In this document: positions 3,200 to 61,713 of the stretch, one piece after another | Layout: each line of letters opens with the position of its first letter | Position numbering within the stretch: position 1 is the first letter of the stretch | Made by a program: the position numbers and the translations under genes | Assembly (NCBI RefSeq): GCF_038719015.1 | Contig: NZ_CP152276.1 | Coordinates: forward strand, 2,671,001-2,735,000 | DNA length: 64,000 nt | Source: Nguyenibacter vanlangensis | Lineage (GTDB): Bacteria > Pseudomonadota > Alphaproteobacteria > Acetobacterales > Acetobacteraceae | Reading direction: 5' to 3' | Notes under the pieces: generated by a model | Databases searched by the model: none | Told to the model about the DNA's origin: nothing | Seen by the model: the letters and a program-made list of their open reading frames with translations, nothing else

Positions 3200-3207
3200 A
3201 TCCGCCC

Positions 3208-3501: not shown

Positions 3502-3706
3502 TCATAGGACCAGAAACTCTTTGGAGCTTACCTCCCGCAAAGGGCAGAAGGGATGGAAACCGTCGGGGATTGCGACAACGATCAGTCATACTGACATTCG
3601 ACATCGGGCAATTTTTGCCGTACAAAGTGCTCGACAAGACACTCAGGCCGTCTCAATGTCCTGCCAAAACATGTTTCCTAGAATTTTCAACTCCGAACTT
3701 CACGTT

Positions 3707-8993: not shown

Positions 8994-9019
8994 AGCGATA
9001 TTCCTCTCTTGGGAGGCGC

Positions 9020-14651: not shown

Positions 14652-14679
14652 TTCCTGCTCCTTTGTCCTTACACCGAAC

Positions 14680-15546: not shown

Positions 15547-15839
15547 GACAGCTTCTCCATCGGAACTTCTGGGGCTTCAGCGCCACGAAGGATAGCCGCC
15601 TGTACACGTGCCTTAATGACACAATCAAGTGCGCCCTTATCTTCGATTTCGATGGATACCGAACTCACTAAGAACGTCTCCAGTGTTTTAGAAACGGTCT
15701 CGCGGATTTGCTTTCCAAATCGCTTTTCCACAGCGCTGCGAATCACGATGTCTATCACCGATCCATCACCAGGTGAAACTTTGACGAGCAAGTCACTTGA
15801 TTCCAGTGTCCCCGCCACTGCGGGCTTGACAATTTTCAT
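15543..15839 (-). CDS. citD: Citrate lyase acyl carrier protein (gamma subunit)
   Basis: The 98-residue protein matches CitD in length and sequence ([16 protein letters not shown] at the N-terminus). Ser14 is the expected site for the covalently bound prosthetic group. It overlaps citC by 4 bp on one side and citE by 4 bp on the other, so the three genes should be translated together. Confidence 0.94.
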
Positions 15840-16900: not shown

Positions 16901-16978
16901 ATTTCACTCCACCCGTGAAAACGAGAAATAAATTCAGGACTGCAATCTGTACATCTACGATACCCAAGCGATAGCAAG

Positions 16979-17722
16979 CTATTCAGCGGCAAAGATTGCA
17001 TTGACGGTGGCAATCTGCTCGACATGTAACGCAGCCTTTGCAGTCATGCCTAGCTTGCGACTTCCGGCTGCTTCCGTCGCCAGCCCAGCCTCGTCGGATT
17101 TAAAATACGGCACGTCGATCGCCGCGATGGAACGCGTCGCCGCCGCCGCGACGATGCACGAGCGGGCGCAAAGCAGGCTCTCCCACGAGCCATCGGCATG
17201 CAGGTCCCGCGCCAGATCGCCCCCCCCGAGGAAGAGTGCGCTGACACGCTCATGGGAGTTGGCGATCCGTTCGGCCGCGAACAGGGCTCGCGCCAACTCC
17301 ACCATGGGAATGATGCCGATCGTTGAAAGCGGCCCATCAAGAATATCGGCGACGACGCCTACCTCATCCGGTGTCCTGCATAAGGGAATAATGATGGCAT
17401 CAGGCTTATACTCAGCCCCATGAAGCGCAATCAGATCCTTTAAGCCGATAACTGATCTTGGGCTGTTGATCCGGACGATTCGAACTGGATTTCCCTCGAC
17501 AGAGCGAGCGAGCCAAGCTATGGCGGCGCGGCGAGCCTTATCCTTGTCGGCCAGCGGAACGGTCGACTCCAGATCAAGAATGACACCATCGCCGAGATAG
17601 CCGGTCTCGTAGCGCTCCGGATGCGAGGCAGGGGTCAACAAAAAGCTCCGGCAGGCTCGCAACCGAGCCTGTAACGATACCACCTCGCTGCTTTGCGGAC
17701 GGCAAGGAACACTTGAATTCAT
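16979..17722 (-). CDS. HpcH/HpaI aldolase/citrate lyase family protein
   Basis: The 247-residue protein is a second CitE-fold lyase with LDLESTVPLADKDKARRA, RIVRINSPRS and IIPMVELARALFAAERIA. The start at 17722 has GGAG nine bases ahead; an upstream TTG at 17737 is less likely. It leads the citrate lyase operon. It is too divergent from citE to be a recent copy and may act on another acyl-CoA or acyl-ACP such as citramalyl- or malyl-CoA. I cannot assign its substrate. Confidence 0.82.
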   Translation of the reverse strand: MNSSVPCRPQSSEVVSLQARLRACRSFLLTPASHPERYETGYLGDGVILDLESTVPLADKDKARRAAIAWLARSVEGNPVRIVRINSPRSVIGLKDLIALHGAEYKPDAIIIPLCRTPDEVGVVADILDGPLSTIGIIPMVELARALFAAERIANSHERVSALFLGGGDLARDLHADGSWESLLCARSCIVAAAATRSIAAIDVPYFKSDEAGLATEAAGSRKLGMTAKAALHVEQIATVNAIFAAE

Positions 17723-18141
17723 CGCAAACAACTCCAAAATATAATAATAGCGCGAGAATTACCGTACATCGTCCAAAGACAAAACTATATGGCACTGATG
17801 TCAGCATAAAATCGCTGTATAAGCCGATGGCATTAACATGGCGAGCCCCTAAGATAAGGCGCTAAGGAAGCGCCATTGAACGCATGAACTGAACGCCGAT
17901 CCCATCTGCCGGAAAATTCTCTCGCTCCGATCTCGTTCCATACCTTCCATTTAATTCCCGCCGTGTCATTGACGGGCGTCACGCGCCGTAAAAATTATGG
18001 CAGGTTGCCGCTTGTCCCCGCCCGGTGAGCTGGAACTCGGTTTTCCGCGATATCACAGACCGTTGGATTACGTCCAAATGAACCCTCTCGATAGCGTCGC
18101 ACAGTCCGGCATCGCGCCGCTCGCGGGGCGGCAATCGCTAT
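17723..18141. other. Intergenic stretch upstream of the citrate lyase operon
   Basis: No convincing gene is seen in these 419 bases. The part nearest 17722 is AT-rich and should hold the operon promoter. The farther part contains the palindrome-like TGACGGGCGTCA (17970-17981), a near match of which recurs at 18882-18893. Confidence 0.5.
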
Positions 18142-26021: not shown

Positions 26022-27178
26022 GGTCTGGTACCATCAGCCCACGTGTCGGGTATGTGTGCGGTCGTGTCAGACGGTGTAGCGACAAAGACTTCCACCGACA
26101 TGCCTGGGGCAAGTCGTTCCGCCAGCTTCTGACCAGGGTCGATGGCGATGTAGATACCGATACGTTGTGGTACTTTAACGAAATTTCCGGTTGCATTGTC
26201 AGGTTTGACTAGCGCGAATTCAGATCCCGTTGCCGGTGCGACGCGCGTGATATGTCCGCTGAATTGCTCCCCGGCCAAGGCATCCACAGTGAAGGTTGCA
26301 TGCTGACCGACGCGCATACGGCTGGTCTGCGCTTCCTTGTAATCGGCGATCACCCAGCGTTCGTCGGGGACAAGCGAAAACAGGGCCGTACCGGCACCGA
26401 CATAGGCACCGACATGGGTGCCGCCGGTCCGGCCGATAACCCCGTCGCTTTCGGCACGGATATGGGTGCGATCCAGATCGATCAGGGCGGAATTCAGGGC
26501 TGCCTTCGCCTGCCTTACGATCGCGCGAAGCACCTGCTCTTCCACGTTCGCTGCCGTTACAGCGGTCTCGGCGGCCCTGAGGTCCGCGCGTGCCTGCCGA
26601 ACAGCGGCTTCGTCCGAGCGCAGTGTGGCAAGCCCCGCATCATAGTCCCGGCGGGAAACCGTCTGATCGGCGACCAGCAGTTCCTGCCGATGATGGTCCG
26701 CGGAACTCTGTGCCAGGTGGGCAAGGGCAGTTTGCAGGGCGGCATCGCGCTGTTCCAGCCCCGCACGGGCCGATGCCTGGTTCTGGCGGTTATTGGCCAG
26801 GGTGGCCTCGCGGCTGGCCACATCCGCCTGTGCCTGTGCGACACGGGCATCATAGGAACTTTCGTCGATCTGAACGAGAACCTGTCCCTTGCGGACGTGG
26901 GCATAGTCGTCGACCAGAACCTGTCTGATATAGCCGGGTACCTGTGGGGCGACGACGGTGACGTGACCCTGCACATAGGCATCGTCCGTCCGTACCCCGT
27001 CAAAGCCGAATGGAGGGAGTTCGAACGCGGACAGCGTGCATGCCACCGCGATGGCTGCGAGCATCAGCGTTATCGTAATGACGATCGCGTTCCGCCGTGG
27101 GGGATGCCATTCAACGGTCGGAGACGGCGGGTTTCCCATGTCCTGACTGCCGCTCGCCGATCCGTCTTGCTGTGTCAT
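26018..27178 (-). CDS. HlyD/EmrA-type membrane fusion protein
   Basis: The 386-residue protein has one membrane helix (about residues 35-55), the VRTDDAYVQGHVTVVAPQVPGY start of the lipoyl domain, a long alpha hairpin rich in Ala/Gln (about 100-210) and a second lipoyl half. It bridges the inner-membrane exporter and the outer-membrane factor. Starts at 27178 with a 4-bp overlap to the MFS gene; an open extension to 27217 would lie inside that gene. Confidence 0.92.
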   Translation of the reverse strand: MTQQDGSASGSQDMGNPPSPTVEWHPPRRNAIVITITLMLAAIAVACTLSAFELPPFGFDGVRTDDAYVQGHVTVVAPQVPGYIRQVLVDDYAHVRKGQVLVQIDESSYDARVAQAQADVASREATLANNRQNQASARAGLEQRDAALQTALAHLAQSSADHHRQELLVADQTVSRRDYDAGLATLRSDEAAVRQARADLRAAETAVTAANVEEQVLRAIVRQAKAALNSALIDLDRTHIRAESDGVIGRTGGTHVGAYVGAGTALFSLVPDERWVIADYKEAQTSRMRVGQHATFTVDALAGEQFSGHITRVAPATGSEFALVKPDNATGNFVKVPQRIGIYIAIDPGQKLAERLAPGMSVEVFVATPSDTTAHIPDTWADGTRP

Positions 27179-28737
27179 GACGGACGCCCCGCGGCATGGC
27201 TGGTAACCCGCATCCACAGGAATGACAGTGCAAGCAGGGCTGCGACGCCGAAGGCAAGATCGCGGACGAAGCCGAAGACATTGATATAGCCAAGAACGGC
27301 GGACTGGTCGGAAAGGTTGCTGATCAAGGAAGATGCACCACGGTTAAGGACGTCCAGCGAAGTGGAGGCCGAGCCGGCGAGACGGTTGGAGAGGCCCGTC
27401 AGCGCGTAACGTTGATAGTGATATTGCAGGCTGCCCAGCACGGCGGATCCGATGACACTTCCAAGGCTTTGTGAAATCGCAAACACGTAAATGGCCGAGA
27501 TGAAATTGCTGGTATCGGATCTGAATACGAGAATGATGTCATACAGAAGGGCGGGCCCCACGAACAACGTCGTGCCGAAACCCAGAAGGGCCTGCGAAAA
27601 ATACATATCGACCGGGCGGCTCTGGGCATTGCTGCCTGTGTCAAGGGCGGCCGCAACAGCGATGACGACGAGTGCCGCGATACACTGAAACGGTATGGTC
27701 CCGGGGGACAGGGTCAACGCCATGGTGGCGATACCACACACCATACCGAGGATGACCCACAGATAAAGCGTATGGAACTGATCATTGAGCAGGCCCGCAT
27801 GCGTGAACAGCCCGATGACACCGGTATCCTGTTCCGATAGGAGCAGTCGCTCCATGATGGCGACTACGACGAACTTCACAAGTGTCGATGTCGACAGCCA
27901 TCCCATTTCCAGCAGAGGCCGGGTACGGCACAGTTCGACGGCGACGGCCGGCGCAAGAAACAGGATCATCGTGACGAGAAGCCAGCCGATCCATGGCGTG
28001 TCCGTCCACCACAGGGTGCGGCCGAGCGTCAGTACAGCAACAAGGGTCACCGATACGATGCTCAACAGCGTGGCCGGAAGCAGGTCGACCGCACCGATCA
28101 CCGGGCCGGTATAGGTCTTCGGCAAGGGTAGAAGCAACACCGCCAGCAGTTGCAGCGATGCGAATGTCGTGGACAGGCAGGCAAAACCCTTATTGCCGGA
28201 ATGGGTCAGCATCTCCACGGGAAACAGGGCCGCGATCGGATTGGCCAGTTGGAGGCTGGCGATGGCCAGCGCGATGGCGAGCACTCTCCGGGATTTTGGA
28301 AGGGCCTGTATGAAATAGTATACGCCGGCCGCGACACTGGTGGAGACCTGCAGGCCATTGGTCACGCGATTGACGACCATGCCGATGAAACCATGGGCCA
28401 GAAGCATAACGAGGCCGCTGGCGACATTGGCCACGAGCAGCCAGTGAAGGATACGCATGATTCCGAATTGCTGTCGGCCCTTGATGACGACCAAATTGGC
28501 GTACGCCGCGGCCGCCACGAAGGCGACGATCAGCCATTCACTTTCGGCTATAGTCAGCCCGGCTTCCCCCGCAACACTGCCAAGATTGCCGGACAGCAGT
28601 GCGTTCTGTGTCGATGCGATGATCGGCATGAGGAAGCCCATGCCGATATAGGCCACACGGCGCGCCATCGGGTGATGCGCGATATAGGGCGCGCCCAGCA
28701 GCGGGGGGCGTTCAAGATCCGAAGGTACTTCAGACAT
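27175..28737 (-). CDS. MFS drug efflux transporter, EmrB/DHA2 type
   Basis: The 520-residue protein has about 14 hydrophobic helices as in the DHA2 family of drug:proton antiporters. Early in the sequence are ISTQNALLSGNLG-like and EWLIVAFVAAAAYANLVVI segments. With the fusion protein and outer-membrane factor it forms an EmrAB-TolC-like pump. It lies 84 bp after the marR gene on the same strand. The exported compound is unknown. Confidence 0.9.
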   Translation of the reverse strand: MSEVPSDLERPPLLGAPYIAHHPMARRVAYIGMGFLMPIIASTQNALLSGNLGSVAGEAGLTIAESEWLIVAFVAAAAYANLVVIKGRQQFGIMRILHWLLVANVASGLVMLLAHGFIGMVVNRVTNGLQVSTSVAAGVYYFIQALPKSRRVLAIALAIASLQLANPIAALFPVEMLTHSGNKGFACLSTTFASLQLLAVLLLPLPKTYTGPVIGAVDLLPATLLSIVSVTLVAVLTLGRTLWWTDTPWIGWLLVTMILFLAPAVAVELCRTRPLLEMGWLSTSTLVKFVVVAIMERLLLSEQDTGVIGLFTHAGLLNDQFHTLYLWVILGMVCGIATMALTLSPGTIPFQCIAALVVIAVAAALDTGSNAQSRPVDMYFSQALLGFGTTLFVGPALLYDIILVFRSDTSNFISAIYVFAISQSLGSVIGSAVLGSLQYHYQRYALTGLSNRLAGSASTSLDVLNRGASSLISNLSDQSAVLGYINVFGFVRDLAFGVAALLALSFLWMRVTSHAAGRPS

Positions 28738-29718: not shown

Positions 29719-31488
29719 TTACAGCCCGATCCCCATGTCCCGCTTCCGGCCGAAGGACCAGTCCACCCCGCCATCGCCGCGCGCGATCCCGGAGACCTGC
29801 CGGCCAAGCTGTTTCTCCAGGGACGGCGTCCAGGGCACCAGTTGGAACCCCAGCCCGTCATCGATCATGGCCATACGCCCCGAGGCCAGGGCAAAGCGCT
29901 GGCGATAGGTGCCCGTCACATATTCACCCTGGGCCGAGGGCTGATGCGGCAGTCCGCTCTGCTGCTCCAGACGCCTGACCAGGTCAGCGACCTCGCGCTC
30001 CCGCAGTGCCACGATCATGCCATGCGGATAGCGCACCTGCTCTCCATCGCGCTGGGCAATGCCCTGCGCGACCAGATGCTCCGACCGCCGGGTCAAAGCA
30101 TCCCGCACCTCGGCGCCGTATCCCCCCTCCCCCAGCGCCACCGGCTCACGCGCGATGAGTTGCCGGTCGAGCCAGGTCGCGCCCCGCGCCGTCACCTGCT
30201 CCGCGACCGACAGGTCCGAGCGCACCGCCAACGCCACACGGCGACGGCCATTGGCGTCCTCGAATTTCCGTACCTCCACCACTGACCTGGACGGACTGTC
30301 GCCGGTCGCCTCCAGCGTCGGCAGATGGACGTGATGGGTACGTCCATCCACCCCGTCGATCACGGCATAGGCCGTGCCCTTCAGTTCGTCGTCGAGGCCG
30401 CGCGCCACCAGTCGCCCGATTACCGGTTCGGCCAGTTCTTCCCCGGCCAGCACCCAGGCTGACGCGGCGCGCTCGATGCCCTGTTCGCTCAGGCCGCGAT
30501 GGATGCGCTTGATGATATCCCCACGCTGGCCCATCTCGCGCAGGGTCGGTTCCGCCGCCTCGTCCAGCCGCCATCGTCCGTCCCCGACCTGGTGCGCCAA
30601 TCCCATCCGCTCCAGGCGCCGCAACCGTCCCACCTTCAGCACCGCGAAGAGATCCGGCCGGCGATCCGGATGCGGGGCTAGGTTGAGAATTCCCCGCTCA
30701 TCGGCATCCTGCTGCAATTGCCGGTCGAGCTGGGTCCAGCGCTCGGCCTCGACCTGCCGTTCCACGGATTTGCGGATCTCGTTCTCAGTGCGGAGACCGA
30801 GTTCCAGCGTGACCAGGTTCTGGGCGCGGGCGCGCAGGCCCTCGCTGATATAGTCGCGGGCGATCACCAGATCCTCGCCCTCCTGGTCCTTGCCACGCAC
30901 GATGATATGGATATGCGGATTATCGGTGTTCCAATGCGACACCGCCACCCAGTCCAGCGTCGTGCCGAGATCCTGCTCGGCCTGGGTCATCAATTCGCGC
31001 GTGAAGGATCTAAGGTCCGCCAGCGCCGGCGCATCCTCCGGCCCGATGATGAAGCGGAAATGATGCCGATCATCCGCGCACCGCTCGGCGAATTCGGACG
31101 CCGGCACCGCGTCGCGCTCGGCGCCGAACAGCTTCGCCTTCTCGCCGTCCTTCGTCACCCCTTCACGCTGGAGGTAGGACAGGTGGGCACGCAGCGAGGC
31201 CCGGCCGCCATGGCGCACGACACGGGCCTTGACCACAGCAAGCCGGGTGCGCCGCGACAGGATGCGGTTGGCGCGCAACGTGGCGCCCCTACCCCGCCCA
31301 AAGGTCGACGGACCCGTCCCGCCTCGTCCTGAACCCGGACGCGCCATGCCGCCGGCCCGGTTGGTCGCGGCGAGAACCTTGCCGATAAAGGACCGCCCCT
31401 GACCCGCGCGGGTCGCGCGGATGCGGCCGGGTCTGACCCGGAATTCGTCATCCTGCACCACGGAAACCCTGACCTTGCTGGAGATCAT
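29719..31488 (-). CDS. Relaxase/mobilization nuclease with DUF3363 domain
   Basis: The 589-residue protein has a basic N-terminus, then a relaxase core with SHWNTDNPHIHIIVRG, whose histidine cluster binds the metal for nicking. A DUF3363 region follows (residues about 250-580). Relaxases of this type nick the transfer origin of Tn4371-like and related proteobacterial integrative elements and plasmids. TraG and the Trb secretion genes, which usually follow, are absent in this window, so the element is probably not self-transmissible. Confidence 0.9.
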   Translation of the reverse strand: MISSKVRVSVVQDDEFRVRPGRIRATRAGQGRSFIGKVLAATNRAGGMARPGSGRGGTGPSTFGRGRGATLRANRILSRRTRLAVVKARVVRHGGRASLRAHLSYLQREGVTKDGEKAKLFGAERDAVPASEFAERCADDRHHFRFIIGPEDAPALADLRSFTRELMTQAEQDLGTTLDWVAVSHWNTDNPHIHIIVRGKDQEGEDLVIARDYISEGLRARAQNLVTLELGLRTENEIRKSVERQVEAERWTQLDRQLQQDADERGILNLAPHPDRRPDLFAVLKVGRLRRLERMGLAHQVGDGRWRLDEAAEPTLREMGQRGDIIKRIHRGLSEQGIERAASAWVLAGEELAEPVIGRLVARGLDDELKGTAYAVIDGVDGRTHHVHLPTLEATGDSPSRSVVEVRKFEDANGRRRVALAVRSDLSVAEQVTARGATWLDRQLIAREPVALGEGGYGAEVRDALTRRSEHLVAQGIAQRDGEQVRYPHGMIVALREREVADLVRRLEQQSGLPHQPSAQGEYVTGTYRQRFALASGRMAMIDDGLGFQLVPWTPSLEKQLGRQVSGIARGDGGVDWSFGRKRDMGIGL

Positions 31489-42517: not shown

Positions 42518-44257
42518 TCACTCTCGCCAGTTATCGGCACGCTTTTTGAAGTCGATATTCTTCCACTCCGCTTTCCAGAGCGTGAGATATTTCACGTCAC
42601 TGGACGAGGGTTCGGGGTCGCATTTCTCCACATACACGACACACGGCATGATGACGGCGTCCCCGATCAGAAGCGCCTCCCCTTGCTCAAGCGCGGGCAT
42701 TCCCTCGGTCAAATTGCCAAGCGTATCCGGCAGTAGTCGGCGGACATAACTTTGGTCATCGGGATTAGTAAGACGCATCGCCAAGAAGTTGGAGCATTGC
42801 GAAAAAATAGTTTCTGAAATTTCAGACGGTCGCTGGCTCGAAATCAGTAGGCTGATGCCGTATTTTCGGCCTTCTTTGGCTATGCGTTCGATAGCAGCCA
42901 GTGAAGCCTTATAGCGGGCAAGACCGCTCTTCGGCGCATATTTGTGCGCTTCCTCATAGACCATCAGGAATGGCTGTTCGGTTTTGCTTTCAACGCGCCG
43001 GGCATAGTAGCAAAAATCGAACATTAGACGGGAGATGAGCGAAACGGTGATGCTGAGCAGTTCAAAAGGGATGCCGCTAAGGTCGATGATGGTGACATTC
43101 GACTCACCTCCCGCGTTGTAGCCAGTGAACTGTCTAAGCACATCCTCCAAAGACGCCTTCTTAGCCTTTTCACCGAAAATAAACCCTAGGCGCGTGTTCG
43201 CGATTTTTGATCTGACCCGTCGTTCGAACTTGTCGATTGTCCCGTCGGCATACGGCCCTTTATTAATCTCACTACGTTTTGTCAGCGCAAATTCGCGCAA
43301 TTCCATACAATAGTGTTCGATCTGGGCATCGACGTCAGGGAAATCGATTTCCGTGTTGTCCTTGAATTTGATCAGCAAAGAATTGTCAGCGTTCTTTGTC
43401 TCTCTGGTGAGATTTCTGAACGCATTCACGACATGATTGATCTCGTATGGAAGTGGGCTGTCAAAATTGACCTTCTCTACATCAGTATTACTGATCTTTT
43501 TTGCGATGGTAACAATCTGCCGCAGCAATGCCTCCTGATTGTAATTGTTGTTGTCCCCTGACTCCAGAAACATGTCCTCCATCTCGTCTTCGTTTAGCAA
43601 CCAATATGGCAGGACGAGATCATCGACGGTAATGACATTTGCTTTCGGAAACGCTGCGGCATATTCGGAATGAAGATCAAATATCAGGATATGGGAGTTG
43701 TTGAGACCCTGGTATTCGCCGGCTTTGGCTGATATGGCTCTTTGCAAAACAGACGACACACTCGACGATTTTCCAGATCCCGAAGCACCGACAACAGCAA
43801 TATGTTTGTTGAAGAACCGGTCGCCATGAACAGGTACAACGATATCACGTTGCCTGGTCAATGACGAAAAGCAAAAGCGGTCTTCAGCCGCATAGCAGTC
43901 TGCATAGATGGCTGCGATTTCCGCTTTCGTCGCCGGCACGACCTTCTTTGGCGGAATGGCGAGTTCGTCACCGCCGCGATTGAACTTTCCGTCTTTAAGG
44001 GTCCCGAGAGGATACGCATCAATCATATAGACGCGCTTGTAGTCACTGCTACCGTCGCCTTCCACCTCTTTCATCTCGATTGAAAAGCTTTCGATGATGC
44101 AGATGAGAGAAACGTTGTCATTGTCCGAGACCTTGAGAAAGGATCCAACACGAAGAGACTCTCCAGCCGCCTGGAAGTTCAAAAGATCATCGACGGCCAC
44201 TCGGACTTTGTTGGGATAAACGGCGACAACCTCAGCATTGGCGATTTCCTCACTCAT
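42518..44257 (-). CDS. herA: HerA-family ATPase, probable anti-phage defence component
   Basis: The 579-residue protein has an N-terminal HAS-barrel-like region (about 1-110), Walker A GASGSGKSSS at 157-166, a Walker-B-like LMVYEEAHKYAP, and ISSQRPSEISETIFSQCSNF with the sensor and arginine-finger region. HerA forms hexameric DNA-translocating rings. In mobile elements, HerA paired with a nuclease or Sir2 protein acts in phage defence. Here the paired gene lies 9 bp upstream on the same strand and encodes a DUF4297/Cap4-like protein, now split by an IS4 element. The gene is AT-richer than its surroundings. Confidence 0.85.
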   Translation of the reverse strand: MSEEIANAEVVAVYPNKVRVAVDDLLNFQAAGESLRVGSFLKVSDNDNVSLICIIESFSIEMKEVEGDGSSDYKRVYMIDAYPLGTLKDGKFNRGGDELAIPPKKVVPATKAEIAAIYADCYAAEDRFCFSSLTRQRDIVVPVHGDRFFNKHIAVVGASGSGKSSSVSSVLQRAISAKAGEYQGLNNSHILIFDLHSEYAAAFPKANVITVDDLVLPYWLLNEDEMEDMFLESGDNNNYNQEALLRQIVTIAKKISNTDVEKVNFDSPLPYEINHVVNAFRNLTRETKNADNSLLIKFKDNTEIDFPDVDAQIEHYCMELREFALTKRSEINKGPYADGTIDKFERRVRSKIANTRLGFIFGEKAKKASLEDVLRQFTGYNAGGESNVTIIDLSGIPFELLSITVSLISRLMFDFCYYARRVESKTEQPFLMVYEEAHKYAPKSGLARYKASLAAIERIAKEGRKYGISLLISSQRPSEISETIFSQCSNFLAMRLTNPDDQSYVRRLLPDTLGNLTEGMPALEQGEALLIGDAVIMPCVVYVEKCDPEPSSSDVKYLTLWKAEWKNIDFKKRADNWRE

Positions 44258-44266
44258 TGTTTGTCC

Positions 44267-44544
44267 TCAGATAATTTTCGTGATTGTGGAGATGCTACTG
44301 ATGGGGATCGAATACATCCGAATCTTTGGACCCGGCAGCGCCATGGTTGCAGGGCGTTCAAGGAAGAAGTCGTATATATGGCACAACTTCCGCCCCGGCC
44401 CATCGAGGACCTCCAGCAACTGGTCAACGTCGTCAACAAGACGAATTTCGATCTGGTGCTCTTGGGTCTGCGGGCTGTGAACGTGATCGATGCGAAATGG
44501 CGATCCGCGATATGGCTCGCCACCCATCAGTTTTTATGGGGTCT
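44267..44544 (-). pseudogene. C-terminal piece of the HerA-partner nuclease gene
   Basis: The minus-strand reading KLMGGEPYRGSPFRIDHVHS, then EIRLVDDVDQLLEVLDG and ATMALPGPKIRMYSIPI, ends at 44267, 9 bp before the herA start. It has no start codon of its own with a ribosome site and begins at the IS4 boundary. I take it as the 3' end of the gene whose 5' part is at 45585-46720. The plus strand of this stretch is also open and cannot be fully excluded. Confidence 0.6.
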
Positions 44545-45584
44545 GGATTGACGTGCTGAATCTGGCTGTGATTCAAGGATTCTGCCCTTGTGAGGAGCGG
44601 ATTTGGCATGACCCCGGCTATTGTGGAAATGGCGGCTGGCATTGCGGCGGATTTGCAGCGTCGGTTGCCTGGGCAGCGCAAGACCCAGCGTGACAAACTC
44701 GCGCTGCTTGTCGCCACCATGCTGGACGCTCGCAGCGCCAATCTGATGGTGTTGGCGGCTTCGTTGCCGCGCGCGGCAGAGCGAGCGGACATGCGTTACC
44801 AGTGGATCGCTCGGTTCATCGACAACCCCCTCGTGGTCTGTGATGAAGTCATGGAACCGTTTGCGCGCGAGGTGCTCACCAAGGCCGCCGAAGACGGGCG
44901 TGTGGTGCTGATCATGGACCAGACCAAGGCCAATGACCGCCATCAGATCCTGATGCTCTCGCTGCGTTTTGGCGAGCGCGCGTTGCCGCTGGCCTGGCGG
45001 GTCGAGGCGACGGAAGGGGCGATCGGGTTCGCTGTTCAGAAGGACCTGCTCCAAGCGGTTGCCGGCTGGTTGCCTTCCCAGGCCGAGATTTGCCTGATGG
45101 CGGATCGGTTCTACGGCACGCCGGATCTGATCGCGTTCGCCATCGCCCGAGGCTGGGGTTATCGGCTGCGCGTGAGGTCCAATCTGCGGGTCGCCGCGGG
45201 CGGCCACAAAACCTCCCTGGCCGAACATGTCACTGACAAGCGTCCCTATCTGACCGACGTCGCGCTCACCCATCGGCGTATTGTCACCAATATCGGCATC
45301 ATCAACGCGCCCGGCCATGCCGAGCCGTGGATCATTGCGATGTCCGACACCCCCAGCTACCTGACAACACTGGATTACAGCGCACGATGGGGCATCGAGC
45401 CCATGTTCTCCGACTTCAAATCGCGCGGCTTCGGTCTCGAACACAGTCAGTTGCGTTCCCCCGAACGTCTCGGCCGGTTGGTGCTGGTGATGAGTATCGC
45501 TTTGTATTTCGCCGTCTCCACCGGCCTGTGCGACGCACAAACCAATCCATCAGCGGACGAAAAAAAAGCCCCAGACGTCAACCC
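44545..45584. mobile_element. IS4-family insertion sequence (approximate ends)
   Basis: A transposase gene sits between short inverted ends, GGATTGACGT (44545-44554) and ACGTCAACCC (45575-45584), which match in 9 of 10 positions. No target duplication is evident, so the true ends may lie a few bases away. The element splits the partner gene of herA. Confidence 0.6.
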
Positions 45585-45594
45585 GCGAACATGA
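44608..45594 (+). CDS. IS4-family transposase
   Basis: The 328-residue protein has a DDE core: first aspartate in LIMDQTKANDRHQIL, second in CLMADRFYGTPDLI, and glutamate in YSARWGIEPMFSDFKSRGFG (the YxxRWxIE-type signature of the family). The start at 44608 is an ATG with GAGGAG ahead. It appears intact. Confidence 0.88.
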   Translation: MTPAIVEMAAGIAADLQRRLPGQRKTQRDKLALLVATMLDARSANLMVLAASLPRAAERADMRYQWIARFIDNPLVVCDEVMEPFAREVLTKAAEDGRVVLIMDQTKANDRHQILMLSLRFGERALPLAWRVEATEGAIGFAVQKDLLQAVAGWLPSQAEICLMADRFYGTPDLIAFAIARGWGYRLRVRSNLRVAAGGHKTSLAEHVTDKRPYLTDVALTHRRIVTNIGIINAPGHAEPWIIAMSDTPSYLTTLDYSARWGIEPMFSDFKSRGFGLEHSQLRSPERLGRLVLVMSIALYFAVSTGLCDAQTNPSADEKKAPDVNPRT

Positions 45595-46720
45595 GCCGCA
45601 GCAGGCTCTCCTGGTTCACGCGCGGCGTCCGGCGCATTGTCAGGCTCCTCCAGTTCCGCAAACCAATGCCGCCATTATGGGCATCCGGATGAAACTGATG
45701 GGTGGTGAGGCGATATGGGAAACCGTCTACGAAAACTGTTCCAGTATCGAAAAGCTGGTTCTTCACTTGCAAGATGAATTTTTCATCCGCGCCGCGTAAC
45801 AGGATGAATGGCGCGTAGCGCTCGGAATTCTGGATGCGGCGCTTCTTAGCCGAACTCCAGTTGTTGCCGATTGCTCTGAGTTGGTCGCAGACAACCGAAC
45901 CGTCGGCTGCCGCACTGCAATCAATGATGAAAGCACGGACGATTCCTGCGCCGTTCGTGGGCGAGAAGTACAGGCGTTTCATATGCTTCGCGTAATCGCT
46001 TGCATCCTTCTCCCGGAGAAGCCAACGATTATGGATAGCTTGAGTACCTTTGAGCAGTTCCTGCAGGTCACGACGGGTGACCTTGCGGTCGTTGTGATCT
46101 TTTTTCGTGGCGAGTGTGGCGATGTAGTCGAAGGCCATTGGATAGTGAAAGCCTTCGGCCTCAAACCCGGAGACGTTTTGATTTTTCCGTATTGCCTCGA
46201 TGACGAGATTGCGATGTTCAGAAAATTCCGTCGAGATTTGTATGCTGAAGCTCTTGCAGAACGCCTCAATTAGCCCATCTGGCGCGGCCATGCCGTCGAG
46301 CAAAGACTTCTTTTCATAGGATTTTGTACCGCCAGCGGCCTTCAGTTCCTTTCGGTATTCCATCACCGATTTGAAGCGCTCGACGGAAAGCTCACCAATA
46401 TCGATCTTAACTTCTGAAAAGTGCCCGTACAGCAGGTATTTTCGGCCTGCCCGTTGTGCTTCTTCGAGCCCATGGAAGTGAACAAAGAGCTTATGCAGGG
46501 GATCACGCAGTACCGAGTCTGTCAGGTTCTGCTCCGCGTAGTATTTTACCTGACCGTAAATGACGCCTTCATCGGTGTAGCGGTCGAAGTCTTCAATGCC
46601 CTCGATGACAACGCTCTCGTCCAGGCCCGCGTTCAGGATTTCGAGTAACGCTGCATCGAGCTGGTAGAAATAGCCCCTAATTGAAGCTGTTGCTTCGCGT
46701 TTTTTGTCGACTTCCAGCAT
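45585..46720 (-). pseudogene. DUF4297/Cap4-like nuclease (HerA partner), N-terminal part
   Basis: About 378 residues starting at 46720 (MLEVDKKREATASIRGYFYQ). The N-terminal domain has VVIEGIEDFDRYTDEG and YGQVKYYAE, the E/D-then-QxK pattern of PD-(D/E)xK nucleases of the DUF4297/Cap4 group. A middle helical domain and SLTMRRTPRVNQESLLRLMF follow. The reading then enters the IS4 element and stops. Joined with the 3' piece next to herA it would make about 465 residues. The intact pair would be a two-gene nuclease-HerA defence system. Confidence 0.7.
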
Positions 46721-46928
46721 CCCACCCCCGAATCAATCACCGATTGACATTATAGGCGAGAGGAAGCGAAGAGTGCGAGTGAGAATATTTGCGCCGACGG
46801 GACTGGCCTGAATGTCGTGAAGGCGTCTGTTTTGTTCCCCCCTAACAATGTCAGCTTTCAGACAACCAGCATAACCGCTTGGAGGTCTGACATGAGGGCG
46901 AAAGCCGACGAAACAGCTGGAGTGACGC

Positions 46929-47860
46929 TTACGCGCCGCCTCCGTATCGCAGAACCGGGATACCGAGTTTCCTGGCCTTGTCGGCCAGGTTCTCCTGGAT
47001 GCCGGTGCCGGGGAAGACGATGACGCCGATCGGCAGGACGTCCAGCATGGCATCGTTGCGCCGGAAGGGCGCCGCCTTGCGGTGCTTGGTCCAGTCCGGC
47101 TTGAAGGCGATCTGCACGATTTCGCGGTGATCGGCCCAGCGCGAGGCGATGAACTCGGCACCCTTGGGCGAGCCGCCATGCAGCAGCACCATGTCGGGAT
47201 GCTTGGCCCGGACCTTGTCGAGCCGGTCCCAGATCAGGACATGGTCGTCGAAGTCCAGCCCGCCGGTCACGACCACCTTGGGACCGGGCGGCACCAGCAA
47301 TTCGCCCTCGGCTTTTCGGCGGGCATTGAGGAAGTCGCGACTGTCGATCATCGACGCCGTCATGGTGCGACGGGAGACCAGCGAGCCGGTCTTCGGCCGC
47401 CAAGCGGACAGGGTCAGGCGTTCGAACTGCTCCTGGGCGGTATATCGCGGAAGATCTCGTAGGCGTTCCGACGCTCGATCAGGGTCAGCCCCTGCGCGAT
47501 CAGGCGCTCCAGTTCCACCGAGCGGATCTCGCTGCCGTCCTGTTCCTGCTGCCCGCGCTTCTGCGCCTGCTCGTTGCGGTCGAGTTCGCGCTCGACCTGC
47601 CCGACCATGCGGTGGAAGACGTTGGTCGCCGACCAGAGAAGCTCTTCGAGGTCGGGCTCCAACCGGGTTTCGGTGAGGGTGGCGGCAATGGCGTCGAAGA
47701 TATCGGCCACCGCGCCGCCGATGCGCTCTGCCTCGGGCAGCGGCCTCGGGTCCGGCTCGTCCTCGAAGGGACGGTAGCCATACATCTGGAGTTCCGCCAG
47801 CACATGGGCGGTCGGGGATGCGGCATGGTCGGGTTCGAAATCGTCTGTCAGGTGGGTCAT
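46929..47860 (-). pseudogene. DUF2493 family protein, split by one frameshift
   Basis: The 5' part starts at 47860 with a strong ribosome site (GGAGGACAGAG) and reads MTHLTDDFEPDHAASPTAHV through LTLIERRNAYEIFRD. In another frame the protein continues as TAQEQFERLTLSAWRPKTGS, then TASMIDSRDFLNARRKAEGE and the DUF2493 Rossmann-like domain (VVVTGGLDFDDH, LLHGGSPKGAE) to 46929. Intact relatives in conjugative elements are one protein of about 310 residues. The frame break is near 47440. An ATG after the break could still yield a 144-residue DUF2493 domain. Confidence 0.78.
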
Positions 47861-55555: not shown

Positions 55556-55682
55556 GCCGTCGGGACGGCGGAACACCCCTCACGCGAATGTGACAACCGT
55601 AAGCGTGAGCTGATCCCCACATAGCATTTGTTCGGTTGCTGGGCGGATGATGCTGTCGATTTCCGCAGGGTGGGCGACGGTC

Positions 55683-56171
55683 ATGACACACGATGATTTT
55701 GGCAACGACGGTTTCGAGCCAGATATTTCAACTACCACTGGTATTATTGATAGTCATATGACGGGTCGTAATGACGGTCATATGACCAGTTCTTACGGGG
55801 CTGGACCGCGCGAGGAAATTGAAATCCGGCGCCGCGTCATCCGTCGTCGTCGCTGGAGCGATCAGGAAAAGGTTCGCATCCTCGAAGAGGCCTTTGCGCC
55901 GGGAGCAAGCCGCAGGGCTGTCGCGGAACAGTATGGGATCGCGCAAGCCCAGCTTTATATATGGCGCAAGCAGTTGATGATGTTTCCTGCCGCCGAGGGA
56001 TTTATGCCGGTTCATGTCGGGGGCTTGGCGATGACGGCACGGCAGCCGGGCGCGTCGTCGCCTGTGGCGGCTGTCGAGATTGTTCTGCCGAACGGCATCA
56101 GCATCCGGACGGGCACGACGTTTGATCCCGACGCGGTGTGTCGGCTGGTTCTTGGCCTGGGACGGCCATGA
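55683..56171 (+). CDS. tnpA: IS66 accessory protein TnpA (copy 1)
   Basis: The roughly 162-residue protein has an HTH of the IS66 Orf1 type (RRRRWSDQEKVRILEEAFAP, then SRRAVAEQYGIAQAQLYIWR). It is required with TnpB for IS66 transposition, likely for DNA binding. An ATG at 55647 is an alternative start. It overlaps tnpB by 4 bp (ATGA). Confidence 0.85.
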   Translation: MTHDDFGNDGFEPDISTTTGIIDSHMTGRNDGHMTSSYGAGPREEIEIRRRVIRRRRWSDQEKVRILEEAFAPGASRRAVAEQYGIAQAQLYIWRKQLMMFPAAEGFMPVHVGGLAMTARQPGASSPVAAVEIVLPNGISIRTGTTFDPDAVCRLVLGLGRP

Positions 56172-56515
56172 TCTGGCCATCGGGAGAGGTCAGGATCTGG
56201 CTGGCCTGCGGGGTGACAGACATGAGACGCGGGATCAACTCCCTGGCGTTGCAGGTGCAGACTACATTGGGCCGGGATCCTCACGATGGATCGATCTACA
56301 TTTTCCGTGGGCGCAAAGGCGACACGATAAAAGTTTTGTTTTGGGATCGGCAGGGCATGTGCCTTGCGATGAAACGCCTTGAATCCGGGAAGTTCGTGTG
56401 GCCCCAGGCCAAAGATGGCTCGGTGTCCCTGACGACGGGTCAGATGGCGATGCTCGTTGAAGCCATCGACTGGCGCGCCACGGCCTGGACGGCAAGGCCG
56501 CAAGTGGTGGGGTGA
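56168..56515 (+). CDS. tnpB: IS66 accessory protein TnpB (copy 1)
   Basis: The 115-residue protein matches the IS66 Orf2/TnpB family (MRRGINSLALQVQTTLGRDP, IYIFRGRKGDTIKVLFWDRQ, LESGKFVWP). It starts within the tnpA stop. Its biochemical role is not established. Confidence 0.93.
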   Translation: MIWPSGEVRIWLACGVTDMRRGINSLALQVQTTLGRDPHDGSIYIFRGRKGDTIKVLFWDRQGMCLAMKRLESGKFVWPQAKDGSVSLTTGQMAMLVEAIDWRATAWTARPQVVG

Positions 56516-56563
56516 TGATGCGGTTTTTCTGTATTGATCCCTTGCCTCCCTTACGATCGGGTC

Positions 56564-58159
56564 ATGTCCGACCCCACGACAGATCCTGCTGAGGAATTGG
56601 CTGCGTTACGTGCCGAACTTGCGGCGACCCGTGAGGCTCTGGCCCGCGCGGAGGACAAATGCACGGCCCTGCAGTTACAGATCGAGCGCACACGGGAGCA
56701 GCTGGCCCTGATGCGGCGGCAGAAATACGGGCAGAAATCCGAGCGTCACCAGAAGGAGATGGACCAGCTCGAACTGGTGCTCGACGAATTCGAGGAGACG
56801 CTGGCCGAGGCCAGTGCCGAACGGGCGGCCCGGGAACGCGAAAAGGGCGAGACATCCACGCCACGCCGCAAGGCCATCCGCCGCCCGCTGCCCGAGCACC
56901 TGCCGCGCGAAGTGATCGAACTGGCGCCGGCGGTCGTGTGCGACTGTAGACGATGCGACCCCGAGCGCCTGGTGCGCATCGGCGAGGACGTGACGGAAGT
57001 GCTGGAGAAGATCACGGCGCCGCTGAAGGTTTTGCGCTATGTCCGCCCCCGCGTGGCCTGCCGCTCGTGCGAAAAGATTTTCCAGGCGCCTGTGCCGGAT
57101 TTACCGATCGAGAAAGGGCGCGCCTCCGCCAGCCTGATTGCAAGCGTGATTGTCGCGAAATACTGGGACGGCCTGCCGTTGCATCGTCAGTCGGCGATCC
57201 TCGCACGCGACGGCGTGGAGATCGATCGCAGCACGCTCGCCGACTGGATCGGACACGGCGCGTGGTGGCTGGAACCGCTGCGGGATCGCATCCAGGCCTA
57301 CGTCATGAACCGCGATGTCCTGTGGACGGACGACACCCCCATCAAGGTGCTGGCGCCGGGGCGCGGAAAGACGAAAGAAGCGCGGATCTGGTGCTATGGC
57401 CACGATCCCGCCACCTGGGGAAGCAACGAGCCGCCGGCGATGTTGTATTGTTACAGCGCCGACCGCAAAGGTGAGCGGCCTCGAACCCATCTTGAGCATT
57501 ATGCCGGCTGGCTGCACTCGGACGCCTATGTGGGATACGAAAAACTGTTTGGCAACAAGGGCGGCAAGCCGTCACCGATCCGGCCGGTGGCCTGCATGGC
57601 CCATGCGCGCCGCTACTTTTTCGATGTCTACGCCACACAGCCGGCCCCCTTGGCCGAAGAGGCTGTGGCCCGGATCGGTCTGCTCTATGACATCGAACGT
57701 GAGATCGGAGGACTGCCGCCGGAACAGCGCCTGGCCGTCCGGCAGGCCCGGGCAGTTCCCATCCTGAAGGATTTCCATACCTGGGCAACGGCCCAGAAAG
57801 CACGGGTCTCCGGCAAATATGCTCTGGGCAAGGCGTTCCGTTACGCTCTGACGCGCTGGGATCGCCTGTGCGCCTATACGCTCGACGGCCGCCTCTCCAT
57901 CGACAATAATTTCTCCGAACGTTGTCTCAGAAATATTGCGGTGACACGGAAGAATTTTCTGTTTCTGGGATCGGACCGGGGTGGAGAGCGAGCCGCGATC
58001 TTCTATACTCTCCTGACCACGGCAGCCCTCAACGGGCTGAATCCGGAACGCTGGATGGCTGATGTAATCGACCGCCTCGCGCGTGGGCATCCGATCAACC
58101 GGATCGACGAACTTTTACCCTGGAACTGGTCGCCACAGGCAAAGCAGAAACCCGCCTGA
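56564..58159 (+). CDS. tnpC: IS66 transposase TnpC (copy 1)
   Basis: The 531-residue protein has an N-terminal coiled coil (residues 5-60), a basic region, a zinc-finger-like [11 protein letters not shown] and CRSCEKIF, and a DDE domain with [27 protein letters not shown] and [17 protein letters not shown] containing the last acidic residue. It is intact. The identical protein is encoded by copy 2. Confidence 0.94.
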   Translation: MSDPTTDPAEELAALRAELAATREALARAEDKCTALQLQIERTREQLALMRRQKYGQKSERHQKEMDQLELVLDEFEETLAEASAERAAREREKGETSTPRRKAIRRPLPEHLPREVIELAPAVVCDCRRCDPERLVRIGEDVTEVLEKITAPLKVLRYVRPRVACRSCEKIFQAPVPDLPIEKGRASASLIASVIVAKYWDGLPLHRQSAILARDGVEIDRSTLADWIGHGAWWLEPLRDRIQAYVMNRDVLWTDDTPIKVLAPGRGKTKEARIWCYGHDPATWGSNEPPAMLYCYSADRKGERPRTHLEHYAGWLHSDAYVGYEKLFGNKGGKPSPIRPVACMAHARRYFFDVYATQPAPLAEEAVARIGLLYDIEREIGGLPPEQRLAVRQARAVPILKDFHTWATAQKARVSGKYALGKAFRYALTRWDRLCAYTLDGRLSIDNNFSERCLRNIAVTRKNFLFLGSDRGGERAAIFYTLLTTAALNGLNPERWMADVIDRLARGHPINRIDELLPWNWSPQAKQKPA

Positions 58160-59151: not shown

Positions 59152-60747
59152 TCAGGCGGGTTTCTGCTTTGCCTGTGGCGACCAGTTCCAGGGTAAAAGT
59201 TCGTCGATCCGGTTGATCGGATGCCCACGCGCGAGGCGGTCGATTACATCAGCCATCCAGCGTTCCGGATTCAGCCCGTTGAGGGCTGCCGTGGTCAGGA
59301 GAGTATAGAAGATCGCGGCTCGCTCTCCACCCCGGTCCGATCCCAGAAACAGAAAATTCTTCCGTGTCACCGCAATATTTCTGAGACAACGTTCGGAGAA
59401 ATTATTGTCGATGGAGAGGCGGCCGTCGAGCGTATAGGCGCACAGGCGATCCCAGCGCGTCAGAGCGTAACGGAACGCCTTGCCCAGAGCATATTTGCCG
59501 GAGACCCGTGCTTTCTGGGCCGTTGCCCAGGTATGGAAATCCTTCAGGATGGGAACTGCCCGGGCCTGCCGGACGGCCAGGCGCTGTTCCGGCGGCAGTC
59601 CTCCGATCTCACGTTCGATGTCATAGAGCAGACCGATCCGGGCCACAGCCTCTTCGGCCAAGGGGGCCGGCTGTGTGGCGTAGACATCGAAAAAGTAGCG
59701 GCGCGCATGGGCCATGCAGGCCACCGGCCGGATCGGTGACGGCTTGCCGCCCTTGTTGCCAAACAGTTTTTCGTATCCCACATAGGCGTCCGAGTGCAGC
59801 CAGCCGGCATAATGCTCAAGATGGGTTCGAGGCCGCTCACCTTTGCGGTCGGCGCTGTAACAATACAACATCGCCGGCGGCTCGTTGCTTCCCCAGGTGG
59901 CGGGATCGTGGCCATAGCACCAGATCCGCGCTTCTTTCGTCTTTCCGCGCCCCGGCGCCAGCACCTTGATGGGGGTGTCGTCCGTCCACAGGACATCGCG
60001 GTTCATGACGTAGGCCTGGATGCGATCCCGCAGCGGTTCCAGCCACCACGCGCCGTGTCCGATCCAGTCGGCGAGCGTGCTGCGATCGATCTCCACGCCG
60101 TCGCGTGCGAGGATCGCCGACTGACGATGCAACGGCAGGCCGTCCCAGTATTTCGCGACAATCACGCTTGCAATCAGGCTGGCGGAGGCGCGCCCTTTCT
60201 CGATCGGTAAATCCGGCACAGGCGCCTGGAAAATCTTTTCGCACGAGCGGCAGGCCACGCGGGGGCGGACATAGCGCAAAACCTTCAGCGGCGCCGTGAT
60301 CTTCTCCAGCACTTCCGTCACGTCCTCGCCGATGCGCACCAGGCGCTCGGGGTCGCATCGTCTACAGTCGCACACGACCGCCGGCGCCAGTTCGATCACT
60401 TCGCGCGGCAGGTGCTCGGGCAGCGGGCGGCGGATGGCCTTGCGGCGTGGCGTGGATGTCTCGCCCTTTTCGCGTTCCCGGGCCGCCCGTTCGGCACTGG
60501 CCTCGGCCAGCGTCTCCTCGAATTCGTCGAGCACCAGTTCGAGCTGGTCCATCTCCTTCTGGTGACGCTCGGATTTCTGCCCGTATTTCTGCCGCCGCAT
60601 CAGGGCCAGCTGCTCCCGTGTGCGCTCGATCTGTAACTGCAGGGCCGTGCATTTGTCCTCCGCGCGGGCCAGAGCCTCACGGGTCGCCGCAAGTTCGGCA
60701 CGTAACGCAGCCAATTCCTCAGCAGGATCTGTCGTGGGGTCGGACAT
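59152..60747 (-). CDS. tnpC: IS66 transposase TnpC (copy 2)
   Basis: This is the same 531-residue transposase as at 56564-58159, with intact coiled coil, CxxC motifs and DDE residues. The upstream leader differs from copy 1 by one inserted base and one substitution near 60778-60785, outside the coding region. Confidence 0.94.
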
Positions 60748-60796
60748 GACCCGATCGTAAGGGAGGCAAGGGATCAGTACAAGAAAAACCGCATCA

Positions 60797-61144
60797 TCAC
60801 CCCACCACTTGCGGCCTTGCCGTCCAGGCCGTGGCGCGCCAGTCGATGGCTTCAACGAGCATCGCCATCTGACCCGTCGTCAGGGACACCGAGCCATCTT
60901 TGGCCTGGGGCCACACGAACTTCCCGGATTCAAGGCGTTTCATCGCAAGGCACATGCCCTGCCGATCCCAAAACAAAACTTTTATCGTGTCGCCTTTGCG
61001 CCCACGGAAAATGTAGATCGATCCATCGTGAGGATCCCGGCCCAATGTAGTCTGCACCTGCAACGCCAGGGAGTTGATCCCGCGTCTCATGTCTGTCACC
61101 CCGCAGGCCAGCCAGATCCTGACCTCTCCCGATGGCCAGATCAT
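60797..61144 (-). CDS. tnpB: IS66 accessory protein TnpB (copy 2)
   Basis: Its 115 residues are identical to copy 1 (56168-56515). The start lies within the tnpA stop on the minus strand. Confidence 0.93.
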   Translation of the reverse strand: MIWPSGEVRIWLACGVTDMRRGINSLALQVQTTLGRDPHDGSIYIFRGRKGDTIKVLFWDRQGMCLAMKRLESGKFVWPQAKDGSVSLTTGQMAMLVEAIDWRATAWTARPQVVG

Positions 61145-61629
61145 GGCCGTCCCAGGCCAAGAACCAGCCGACACACCGCGTCGGGATCAAACGTCGTGCC
61201 CGTCCGGATGCTGATGCCGTTCGGCAGAACAATCTCGACAGCCGCCACAGGCGACGACGCGCCCGGCTGCCGTGCCGTCATCGCCAAGCCCCCGACATGA
61301 ACCGGCATAAATCCCTCGGCGGCAGGAAACATCATCAACTGCTTGCGCCATATATAAAGCTGGGCTTGCGCGATCCCATACTGTTCCGCGACAGCCCTGC
61401 GGCTTGCTCCCGGCGCAAAGGCCTCTTCGAGGATGCGAACCTTTTCCTGATCGCTCCAGCGACGACGACGGATGACGCGGCGCCGGATTTCAATTTCCTC
61501 GCGCGGTCCAGCCCCGTAAGAACTGGTCATATGACCGTCATTACGACCCGTCATATGACTATCAATAATACCAGTGGTAGTTGAAATATCTGGCTCGAAA
61601 CCGTCGTTGCCAAAATCATCGTGTGTCAT
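61141..61629 (-). CDS. tnpA: IS66 accessory protein TnpA (copy 2)
   Basis: Identical to copy 1 (55683-56171), with the HTH segment RRRRWSDQEKVRILEEAFAP. It is the first gene of the element, 63 bases from the end. Confidence 0.85.
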   Translation of the reverse strand: MTHDDFGNDGFEPDISTTTGIIDSHMTGRNDGHMTSSYGAGPREEIEIRRRVIRRRRWSDQEKVRILEEAFAPGASRRAVAEQYGIAQAQLYIWRKQLMMFPAAEGFMPVHVGGLAMTARQPGASSPVAAVEIVLPNGISIRTGTTFDPDAVCRLVLGLGRP

Positions 61630-61713
61630 GACCGTCGCCCACCCTGCGGAAATCGACAGCATCATCCGCCCAGCAACCGAACAAATGCTATGTGGGGATC
61701 AGCTCACGCTTAC

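What the first reader, a model, noticed from the sequence alone, without database searches (positions are those of the whole stretch)
42518..46720. HerA plus DUF4297/Cap4-like nuclease pair, disrupted by an IS4 element
A HerA hexameric ATPase gene is preceded by a nuclease-like gene on the same strand, ending 9 bp before the herA start. The nuclease N-terminal domain shows IEGIEDFD and YGQVKYY, a PD-(D/E)xK-like pattern. HerA paired with DUF4297 or Sir2 proteins is an established type of anti-phage defence. Here an IS4 copy separates about 378 N-terminal from about 85 C-terminal residues. The C-terminal sequence is unfamiliar to me, so this may be a subtype. Loss of the nuclease but retention of HerA suggests that the effector was costly.
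Basis: partly seen in the sequence, partly recalled or inferred. Interest (0 to 1): 0.7.

Follow-up and report, generated by a model that had tools for sequence, protein, structure and literature searches.

The report
Anti-phage nuclease gene broken by transposon
A known two-gene bacterial defence against viruses (a DNA pump, HerA, and its DNA-cutting partner) has very probably been switched off here by a jumping gene that landed in the cutter; the event is ordinary, but close relatives show that one whole domain of the pump has been exchanged between otherwise near-identical copies, which may hint at how the system is triggered.

Summary
The finding is real. An intact 579-aa HerA gene (42518-44257, minus strand) follows a DUF4297-type nuclease gene split by a 1,194-bp DDE (IS4-like) insertion sequence at 44516-45709, with 9-bp target duplications and six near-identical copies in the genome, this one included. 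The two nuclease pieces match adjoining parts of one profile (PADLOC 2-328 and 323-404 of 404), and in ten close relatives they form one open 416-codon gene ending 9 bp before herA. This is the established DUF4297-HerA defence, not a new subtype. The insertion cuts off the last 79 of about 178 residues of the C-terminal domain, which builds the DUF4297 layers and contacts HerA, so the system is predicted to be off although the catalytic residues tested survive. Nothing I measured supports "the effector was costly". Unexpected: among HerA proteins about 96% identical elsewhere, the helical domain (residues about 243-375, which contains the DNA-entry insertion subdomain) exists as discrete old types, 73% identical between types with saturated synonymous sites, at odds with the history of the flanks. 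Its role is unknown; I propose it sets triggering or DNA entry.

The parts
42518..44257 (-). herA: anti-phage-associated HerA DNA-translocating ATPase, 579 aa, intact; residues K163, S164, E435, E436, R464, K465 match the E. coli Walker and arginine-finger residues
43109..43531 (-). herA codons 243-383: exchanged helical domain, type A (fixed A/B differences span codons 243-375)
45710..46720 (-). native N-terminal piece of the DUF4297 nuclease gene, 337 codons: Cap4-like nuclease domain (E40, D44, Q57, K59) and the first part of the C-terminal domain
45578..45709 (-). 43 codons and stop read out of the insertion sequence: foreign tail of the 380-aa truncated product
44516..45709 (+). IS4-like (DDE) insertion sequence, 1,194 bp, inverted ends 44516-44533 and 45692-45709 (17 of 18 matching)
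44590..45594 (+). transposase of the insertion sequence (DDE_Tnp_1), opposite strand to the defence genes
44507..44515 (.). target-site duplication GCGATATGG, left copy
45710..45718 (.). target-site duplication GCGATATGG, right copy
44267..44506 (-). native C-terminal piece of the nuclease gene, 79 codons and stop; ends 9 bp before herA
44267..44527 (-). 86-aa ORF that starts with ATG inside the insertion end and reads in frame into the C piece (expression not shown)

Best explanation
A DUF4297-HerA anti-phage operon carried on mobile-element-type DNA and inactivated, apparently not long ago, by an IS4-like insertion. In the intact system, as published for E. coli, twelve DUF4297 subunits stack in two layers on a HerA hexamer through their C-terminal domains; assembly makes HerA planar and active and pairs the nuclease domains, so that DNA drawn through HerA is degraded. 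Shown here: both genes, their family, the insertion with its target duplication, intact relatives, conserved catalytic residues, and that the insertion lies inside the C-terminal domain. Inferred: the 380-aa product keeps the nuclease domain but loses the last 79 residues of the C-terminal domain (in the model of the intact relative, three strands and four short helices after residue 337) and gains a 43-residue foreign tail; it should fail to assemble on HerA, leaving an unassembled, almost inactive nuclease and a HerA hexamer with very low ATPase activity, so the cell has no working system.
For: Families: PADLOC and NCBIfam, both pieces and HerA; HerA to 8XAU, E 2.8e-180; nuclease N piece to 8XAV, E 1e-35 and 3e-35. 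One gene in relatives: 10 of 10 close loci with a 416-aa open nuclease and a 9-bp gap. Insertion. Catalytic residues: E40, D44, Q57, K59 invariant in the 26 relatives aligned and present here; Q57/K59 align with E. coli Q53/K55, the residues replaced in PDB 8XAY. Domain map: E. coli G224, the published start of the C-terminal domain, aligns with residue 239; the cut is after 337 of 416; model of intact relative L007 mean pLDDT 88, best PDB match E. coli DUF4297 8ZGI, E 6e-23. Mechanism from PMC11291478 (abstract, introduction, Results parts 1 and 2 of 3, discussion, passages) and PMC12198126 (part 1 of 2).
Against: Loss of function is predicted, not measured. Two curated cut-offs are only just met (HerA 854.1/850; N piece 302.8/300), and Pfam's Cap4_nuclease is below its cut-off (13.5/26.2 bits). 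The nuclease pieces show no extra stops or frameshifts; dN/dS against L007 is 0.23 (N) and 0.34 (C), inside the range of intact pairs (up to 0.24 and 0.44), so the sequence does not show relaxed constraint; herA itself, 0.145, lies above its range (up to 0.098), which I take for a close-pair effect.
Confidence: 0.9

Rival explanations
1. The nuclease still works as two chains: the 380-aa N piece and a separately translated C piece that starts at an ATG in the insertion end (44527) fold together on HerA.
For: An 86-aa in-frame ORF from inside the insertion end covers the whole C piece; neither piece shows decay.
Against: No sigma-70-like promoter match in 44200-46950 on either strand (0 found, 1.1 expected by chance; other promoter types are not covered); I saw no clear ribosome-binding site before that ATG by eye; the N piece carries a 43-residue foreign tail; published changes at the C-terminal-domain dimer interface gave no soluble protein (PMC11291478).
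Confidence: 0.06
2. The insertion was selected because the effector is costly, and HerA was kept for a use of its own.
For: HerA is intact with all six checked ATPase residues; the complex is reported toxic when active (PMC11291478 discussion).
Against: In the 28 of 30 fetched relatives with room upstream, a nuclease-like gene precedes herA in 28, open in 27; HerA alone is reported nearly inactive; six copies of the element in the genome make a chance insertion sufficient; the event looks too recent for selection on HerA alone to be visible.
Confidence: 0.08
3. The element is polymorphic or reversible in the population, so that the break acts as a switch.
For: The duplication is perfect and the nuclease frame is otherwise open.
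Against: No strain series or reads are held; this copy differs from four of the other five at 6 of 1,194 positions (the fifth is one base shorter), so it is not a fresh copy of the others.
Confidence: 0.05

Closest known systems
E. coli DUF4297-HerA (PDB 8XAU/8XAV; An et al. 2024, PMC11291478)
   Same: Gene order, both families, catalytic residues of both enzymes, fold (Foldseek: HerA model to 8XAV_A, E 8e-60, 49% identity; nuclease of relative L007 to 8ZGI_A, E 6e-23). HerA 289 of 561 aligned residues identical, nuclease of L007 113 of 387, to E. coli strain H1.
   Different: Here the nuclease is broken by an insertion; HerA residues aligned with the DNA-contacting R284/K287 are T287/A290, with R285 and K288 two places off.
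Other solved DUF4297-HerA complexes (PDB 8ZIQ, 9C1M)
   Same: Same two families by sequence and fold.
   Different: More distant: HerA E 2.7e-120 and 1.8e-115 against 2.8e-180 for 8XAU.
Sir2-HerA (Nezha; PDB 8J4U, 8SUB, 8WLD)
   Same: HerA-type ATPase with an upstream effector.
   Different: Effector is Sir2, not a Cap4-type nuclease; HerA much more distant.
Lamassu LmuA / CBASS Cap4 nucleases
   Same: Same nuclease superfamily: LmuA profile E 1.5e-12 on the N piece; Foldseek matches to LmuA and Cap4 at E 2e-6 to 1e-3.
   Different: Partner is HerA, not the LmuB/LmuC proteins or a cyclase; DUF4297 profiles score far higher.

Membership tests
DUF4297-HerA defence system | HerA of the anti-phage family above the curated cut-off | tested here: met
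   NF042944 854.1 bits, cut-off 850; PADLOC PDLC02188 803 bits
DUF4297-HerA defence system | DUF4297-family gene directly upstream on the same strand | tested here: met
   N piece NF042945 302.8 bits, cut-off 300; C piece 47.5 bits on positions 319-400; 9-bp gap to herA
DUF4297-HerA defence system | Nuclease residues of the PD-(D/E)xK-type site | tested here: met
   E40, D44, Q57, K59 present and invariant in the 26 aligned relatives
DUF4297-HerA defence system | HerA Walker and arginine-finger residues | tested here: met
   K163, S164, E435, E436, R464, K465 aligned with E. coli residues
DUF4297-HerA defence system | Complete C-terminal domain in one polypeptide, needed to build the complex | tested here: not met
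   79 of about 178 residues lie beyond the insertion: a broken member, not a working one
DUF4297-HerA defence system | Protection against phage | not testable with these tools
   needs an experiment
Sir2-HerA (Nezha) | Sir2 partner gene | tested here: not met
   Upstream gene matches DUF4297, not Sir2, in Pfam, PADLOC and NCBIfam scans
Lamassu | LmuB partner beside LmuA | tested here: not met
   The neighbouring partner is HerA; LmuA profile score 46.5 bits against 215.4 for DUF4297
IS4 family insertion sequence | Transposase above NCBIfam's IS4 cut-off | tested here: not met
   NF033591 141.6 bits, cut-off 152; Pfam DDE_Tnp_1 40 bits, cut-off 23, is met; called IS4-like only
IS4 family insertion sequence | Terminal inverted repeats and short direct target duplication | tested here: met
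   17 of 18 matching ends; 9-bp duplication here, 9 bp (10 in one) at the other five copies

The most novel reading that the evidence does not exclude
The helical domain of HerA in this clade, which holds the insertion subdomain that closes and contacts DNA at the hexamer's entry, is an exchangeable cassette kept in discrete old types. It is the part of DUF4297-HerA that meets the invader or its trigger, so types differ in what sets the system off or what DNA is let in, independently of the nuclease partner.
Probability: 0.25. Interest if true: 0.65.

Novelty: new member of a known kind. Interest (0 to 1): 0.35.

Why it matters
The broken locus itself is one more case of a defence system lost by transposition. 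What could matter is the comparison it led to. An et al. 2024 state that how phage infection triggers DUF4297-HerA awaits investigation. A domain that changes as a block between near-identical HerA proteins, is under purifying selection within each type, sits at the DNA entry and does not track the nuclease is a concrete candidate for that missing part, and pairs of natural HerA proteins that differ almost only there already exist.

Tried and rejected
Rejected: a new subtype because of the C-terminus (it matches the ordinary family). Rejected: Sir2-HerA or Lamassu membership. Not supported: the cost argument (one search shows no decay or other sign either way).

Looked for and not found: sigma-70-like promoters in 44200-46950 (0 found); further defence genes among nine other window proteins by PADLOC (0 of 9 hit at 1e-3; most window genes were not scanned); relatives of this HerA in viral contigs (none by tblastn); the element in PLSDB plasmids by megablast (no match). 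No second case of the domain exchange: in E. coli, herA close to L050 occurs in 11 of 5,426 genomes as two groups (2 at 100%, 9 at 93%), and the two I compared (L050, L051) differ evenly along the gene.

Led nowhere: the class-wide search with a RecQ-like protein to find a Rhizobiaceae centre (best hits only 51-53% identical); class-wide search for close HerA (own genome only, 1 of 385).

Tree tests that weaken the exchange claim: with both flanks pooled, the five type-A rows as one clade are not rejected (p-AU 0.264), and for the upstream flank alone p is 0.055. They are rejected by the downstream flank (p 0.006), and type B with L017 is rejected by both flanks (p 0.0016 and 0.0005). Module distances also correlate with pooled flank distances (r 0.44). 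Hence at least one replacement is well supported; frequent exchange is not shown.
Full report
1. What is there. On the minus strand, a nuclease gene is followed by herA. The HerA ORF is intact (42518-44257, 579 aa). The nuclease reading frame begins at 46720, runs 337 native codons to 45710, enters an insertion sequence and stops there after 43 foreign codons (ORF 45578-46720, 380 aa). Beyond the insertion, 79 native codons (44506-44270) complete the gene, which stops 9 bp before herA. The insertion is 44516-45709, 1,194 bp, ends matching at 17 of 18 positions, with GCGATATGG repeated on both sides. The genome (one contig, 4.75 Mb) holds six copies including this one, the other five also flanked by 9-bp (one by 10-bp) duplications. 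This copy differs from four of them at 6 of 1,194 positions; the fifth is one base shorter. The transposase carries DDE_Tnp_1 (40 bits, cut-off 23), but NCBIfam's IS4 model scores 141.6 against a cut-off of 152, so I write IS4-like.

2. One gene in relatives. A scan of genome contigs with HerA gave 30 loci (a pattern-based scan, not exhaustive). In the ten closest (L007-L016; HerA 89-98% identical) the two nuclease pieces lie in one open frame of 416 codons with a 9-bp gap to herA, 10 of 10. Over all 30 loci, two begin too close to the contig end to judge (L024, L027). Of the other 28, a nuclease-like gene precedes herA in 28; it is open in 27 and broken in one (L035, a metagenome assembly, reading stops at 276 aa). 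Within this sample the window is the only one broken by an insertion sequence.

3. Family. PADLOC: HerA PDLC02188 803 bits; nuclease PDLC02187 on the N piece (positions 2-328 of 404, E 3e-64) and on the C piece (323-404, E 2e-9). NCBIfam: HerA NF042944 854.1 bits (cut-off 850), N piece NF042945 302.8 (cut-off 300), C piece 47.5 (positions 319-400 of 400), intact L007 358. Pfam's Cap4_nuclease is only a sub-threshold hit on the N piece (E 0.083). Closest solved structures: HerA 8XAU (E 2.8e-180), nuclease 8XAV (E 1e-35). A model of the intact relative L007 (pLDDT 88, pTM 0.63) matches E. coli DUF4297 8ZGI (E 6e-23); a model of the window's HerA (pLDDT 79, pTM 0.78) matches 8XAV_A (E 8e-60).

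4. Consequence of the break. In the E. coli complex (PMC11291478: abstract, introduction, two of three parts of Results, discussion and passages read; PMC12198126: first of two parts read) the C-terminal domain of DUF4297 makes the layer contacts, the tail-to-tail dimer and the contact with HerA; interface mutants lost assembly and defence; each protein alone is nearly inactive. E. coli G224, the published boundary, aligns with residue 239; the insertion falls after residue 337 of 416, so 79 of about 178 residues of that domain are cut off. Nuclease residues E40, D44, Q57, K59 are kept (invariant in the 26 relatives aligned; Q57/K59 are E. coli Q53/K55), and so are HerA's K163, S164, E435, E436, R464, K465. 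Hence the prediction: a nuclease with an intact active site that cannot be built into the active machine, and an idle HerA. This is inference; nothing here measures activity.

5. Age and selection. Neither piece has a stop or frameshift. dN/dS to L007 is 0.23 for the N piece and 0.34 for the C piece, within the spread of 45 intact pairs (N up to 0.236, C up to 0.442); herA at 0.145 is above its spread (up to 0.098), probably because the pair is so close. So the break looks recent, and relaxed constraint cannot be seen. Nothing here speaks for or against cost as the cause.

6. Setting. The neighbourhood has mobile-element genes: a DUF3363/RlxS-like relaxase (29719-31488; RlxS model 603.5 bits, below its cut-off of 850), DUF736, DUF2493, Toprim, HU, DUF932 and ParB-type genes, and several transposases. 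In Acetobacter tropicalis (L007) the pair lies next to homologues of ParB (70%), DUF932 (81%), HU (75%) and Toprim (71%, partial), but in front of ParB rather than behind DUF2493: the same kind of element, another slot. In the other nine close loci those genes were not found within the stretch held. HerA is 98% identical between an acetic acid bacterium and the betaproteobacterium Achromobacter, and the 6 other genomes of the window's genus that were drawn lack it at E 1e-40 (9 of 299 family genomes hit, this genome the only close one). The pair travels horizontally.

7. A domain exchange in HerA. Comparing the 11 closest HerA genes (window, L007-L016), one stretch stands apart. Outside residues 242-383 the proteins are 96-97% identical whichever pair is taken; inside, they fall into type A (window, L007-L010) and type B (L011-L016), 93.5% and 95.1% identical within and 73.4% between types; DNA 92%, 90.5% and 69%. 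All 28 fixed A/B amino-acid differences lie in 243-375. Between types 82% of synonymous sites differ in the module against 33% and 39% in the two flanks, while within types dN/dS is 0.09 and 0.04: old, constrained types, not a fast-evolving loop. Two-group contrast in 399-nt blocks peaks at 0.21 there; it is at most 0.06 in herA blocks that do not overlap the module and in the nuclease N piece. A more diverged HerA, L017, has a type-B module (91.5% to B, 73% to A) on flanks equally far from both, and L048 has a third type (75% to A, 77% to B). Trees: the module separates A and B with full support; the flanks reject B plus L017 (p 0.0016 upstream, 0.0005 downstream) and A (downstream p 0.006; upstream 0.055; pooled 0.264, not rejected). 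At least one replacement of the block is therefore well supported; how often it happens is not.

8. What the block is. In the model it runs from the helix at 241-256 to the helix at 370-378, between the strands of the ATPase core: a whole domain. It aligns with E. coli HerA 236-363, which includes R284 and K287 of the insertion subdomain, reported to contact DNA, in the part reported to close the hexamer base where DNA enters. It does not track the nuclease (distance correlation r -0.06). My reading: this domain meets what comes in, and its type may set trigger or DNA entry. Against: module and pooled flanks correlate (r 0.44); the domain is also the least conserved part of HerA in distant relatives (for example 57% against 73-75% in L019), so looser constraint contributes; E. 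coli shows no such contrast in the two of 11 genes that I compared; no function was tested. In five literature searches (listings seen, open-licence papers only) I saw no report of it.

9. Verdict.

Noticed in passing
43109-43531 (herA codons 243-383); L007-L017, L048: The helical domain of HerA occurs as discrete old types on near-identical backbones (see full report, sections 7 and 8).
   Followed up: yes
L049 (Sinorhizobium medicae plasmid) 3001-3711; plasmid record NZ_CP069303 2075938-2076336: Unannotated remnants of very similar herA genes (residues 342-578, 94%; 446-578, 97%); in L049 an ISRm3-family transposase gene lies nearby. Loss of this system may be common.
   Followed up: partly
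L035: In a Lachnospiraceae metagenome assembly the nuclease reading stops early although the match goes on, as with a frameshift or an assembly error.
   Followed up: no
55647-58159 and 59152-61665: Two IS66-type transposase gene sets in opposite orientation with ORFs of matching size (174 and 125 aa) flank a UPF0149/SEC-C gene, like a composite element.
   Followed up: no
13131-17737: Citrate lyase genes (CitF, CitE-type, citrate lyase ligase) in a stretch of about 53-55% GC, below much of the rest of the window, with a membrane transporter and an OprB porin nearby.
   Followed up: no
7332-9905: 857-aa ORF of a thiamine-pyrophosphate enzyme whose first domain starts only at residue 311; the start may be called too early or there is an N-terminal extension.
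   Followed up: no
27175-28737: 520-aa ORF without a Pfam match beside HlyD- and outer-membrane-efflux-type genes.
   Followed up: no
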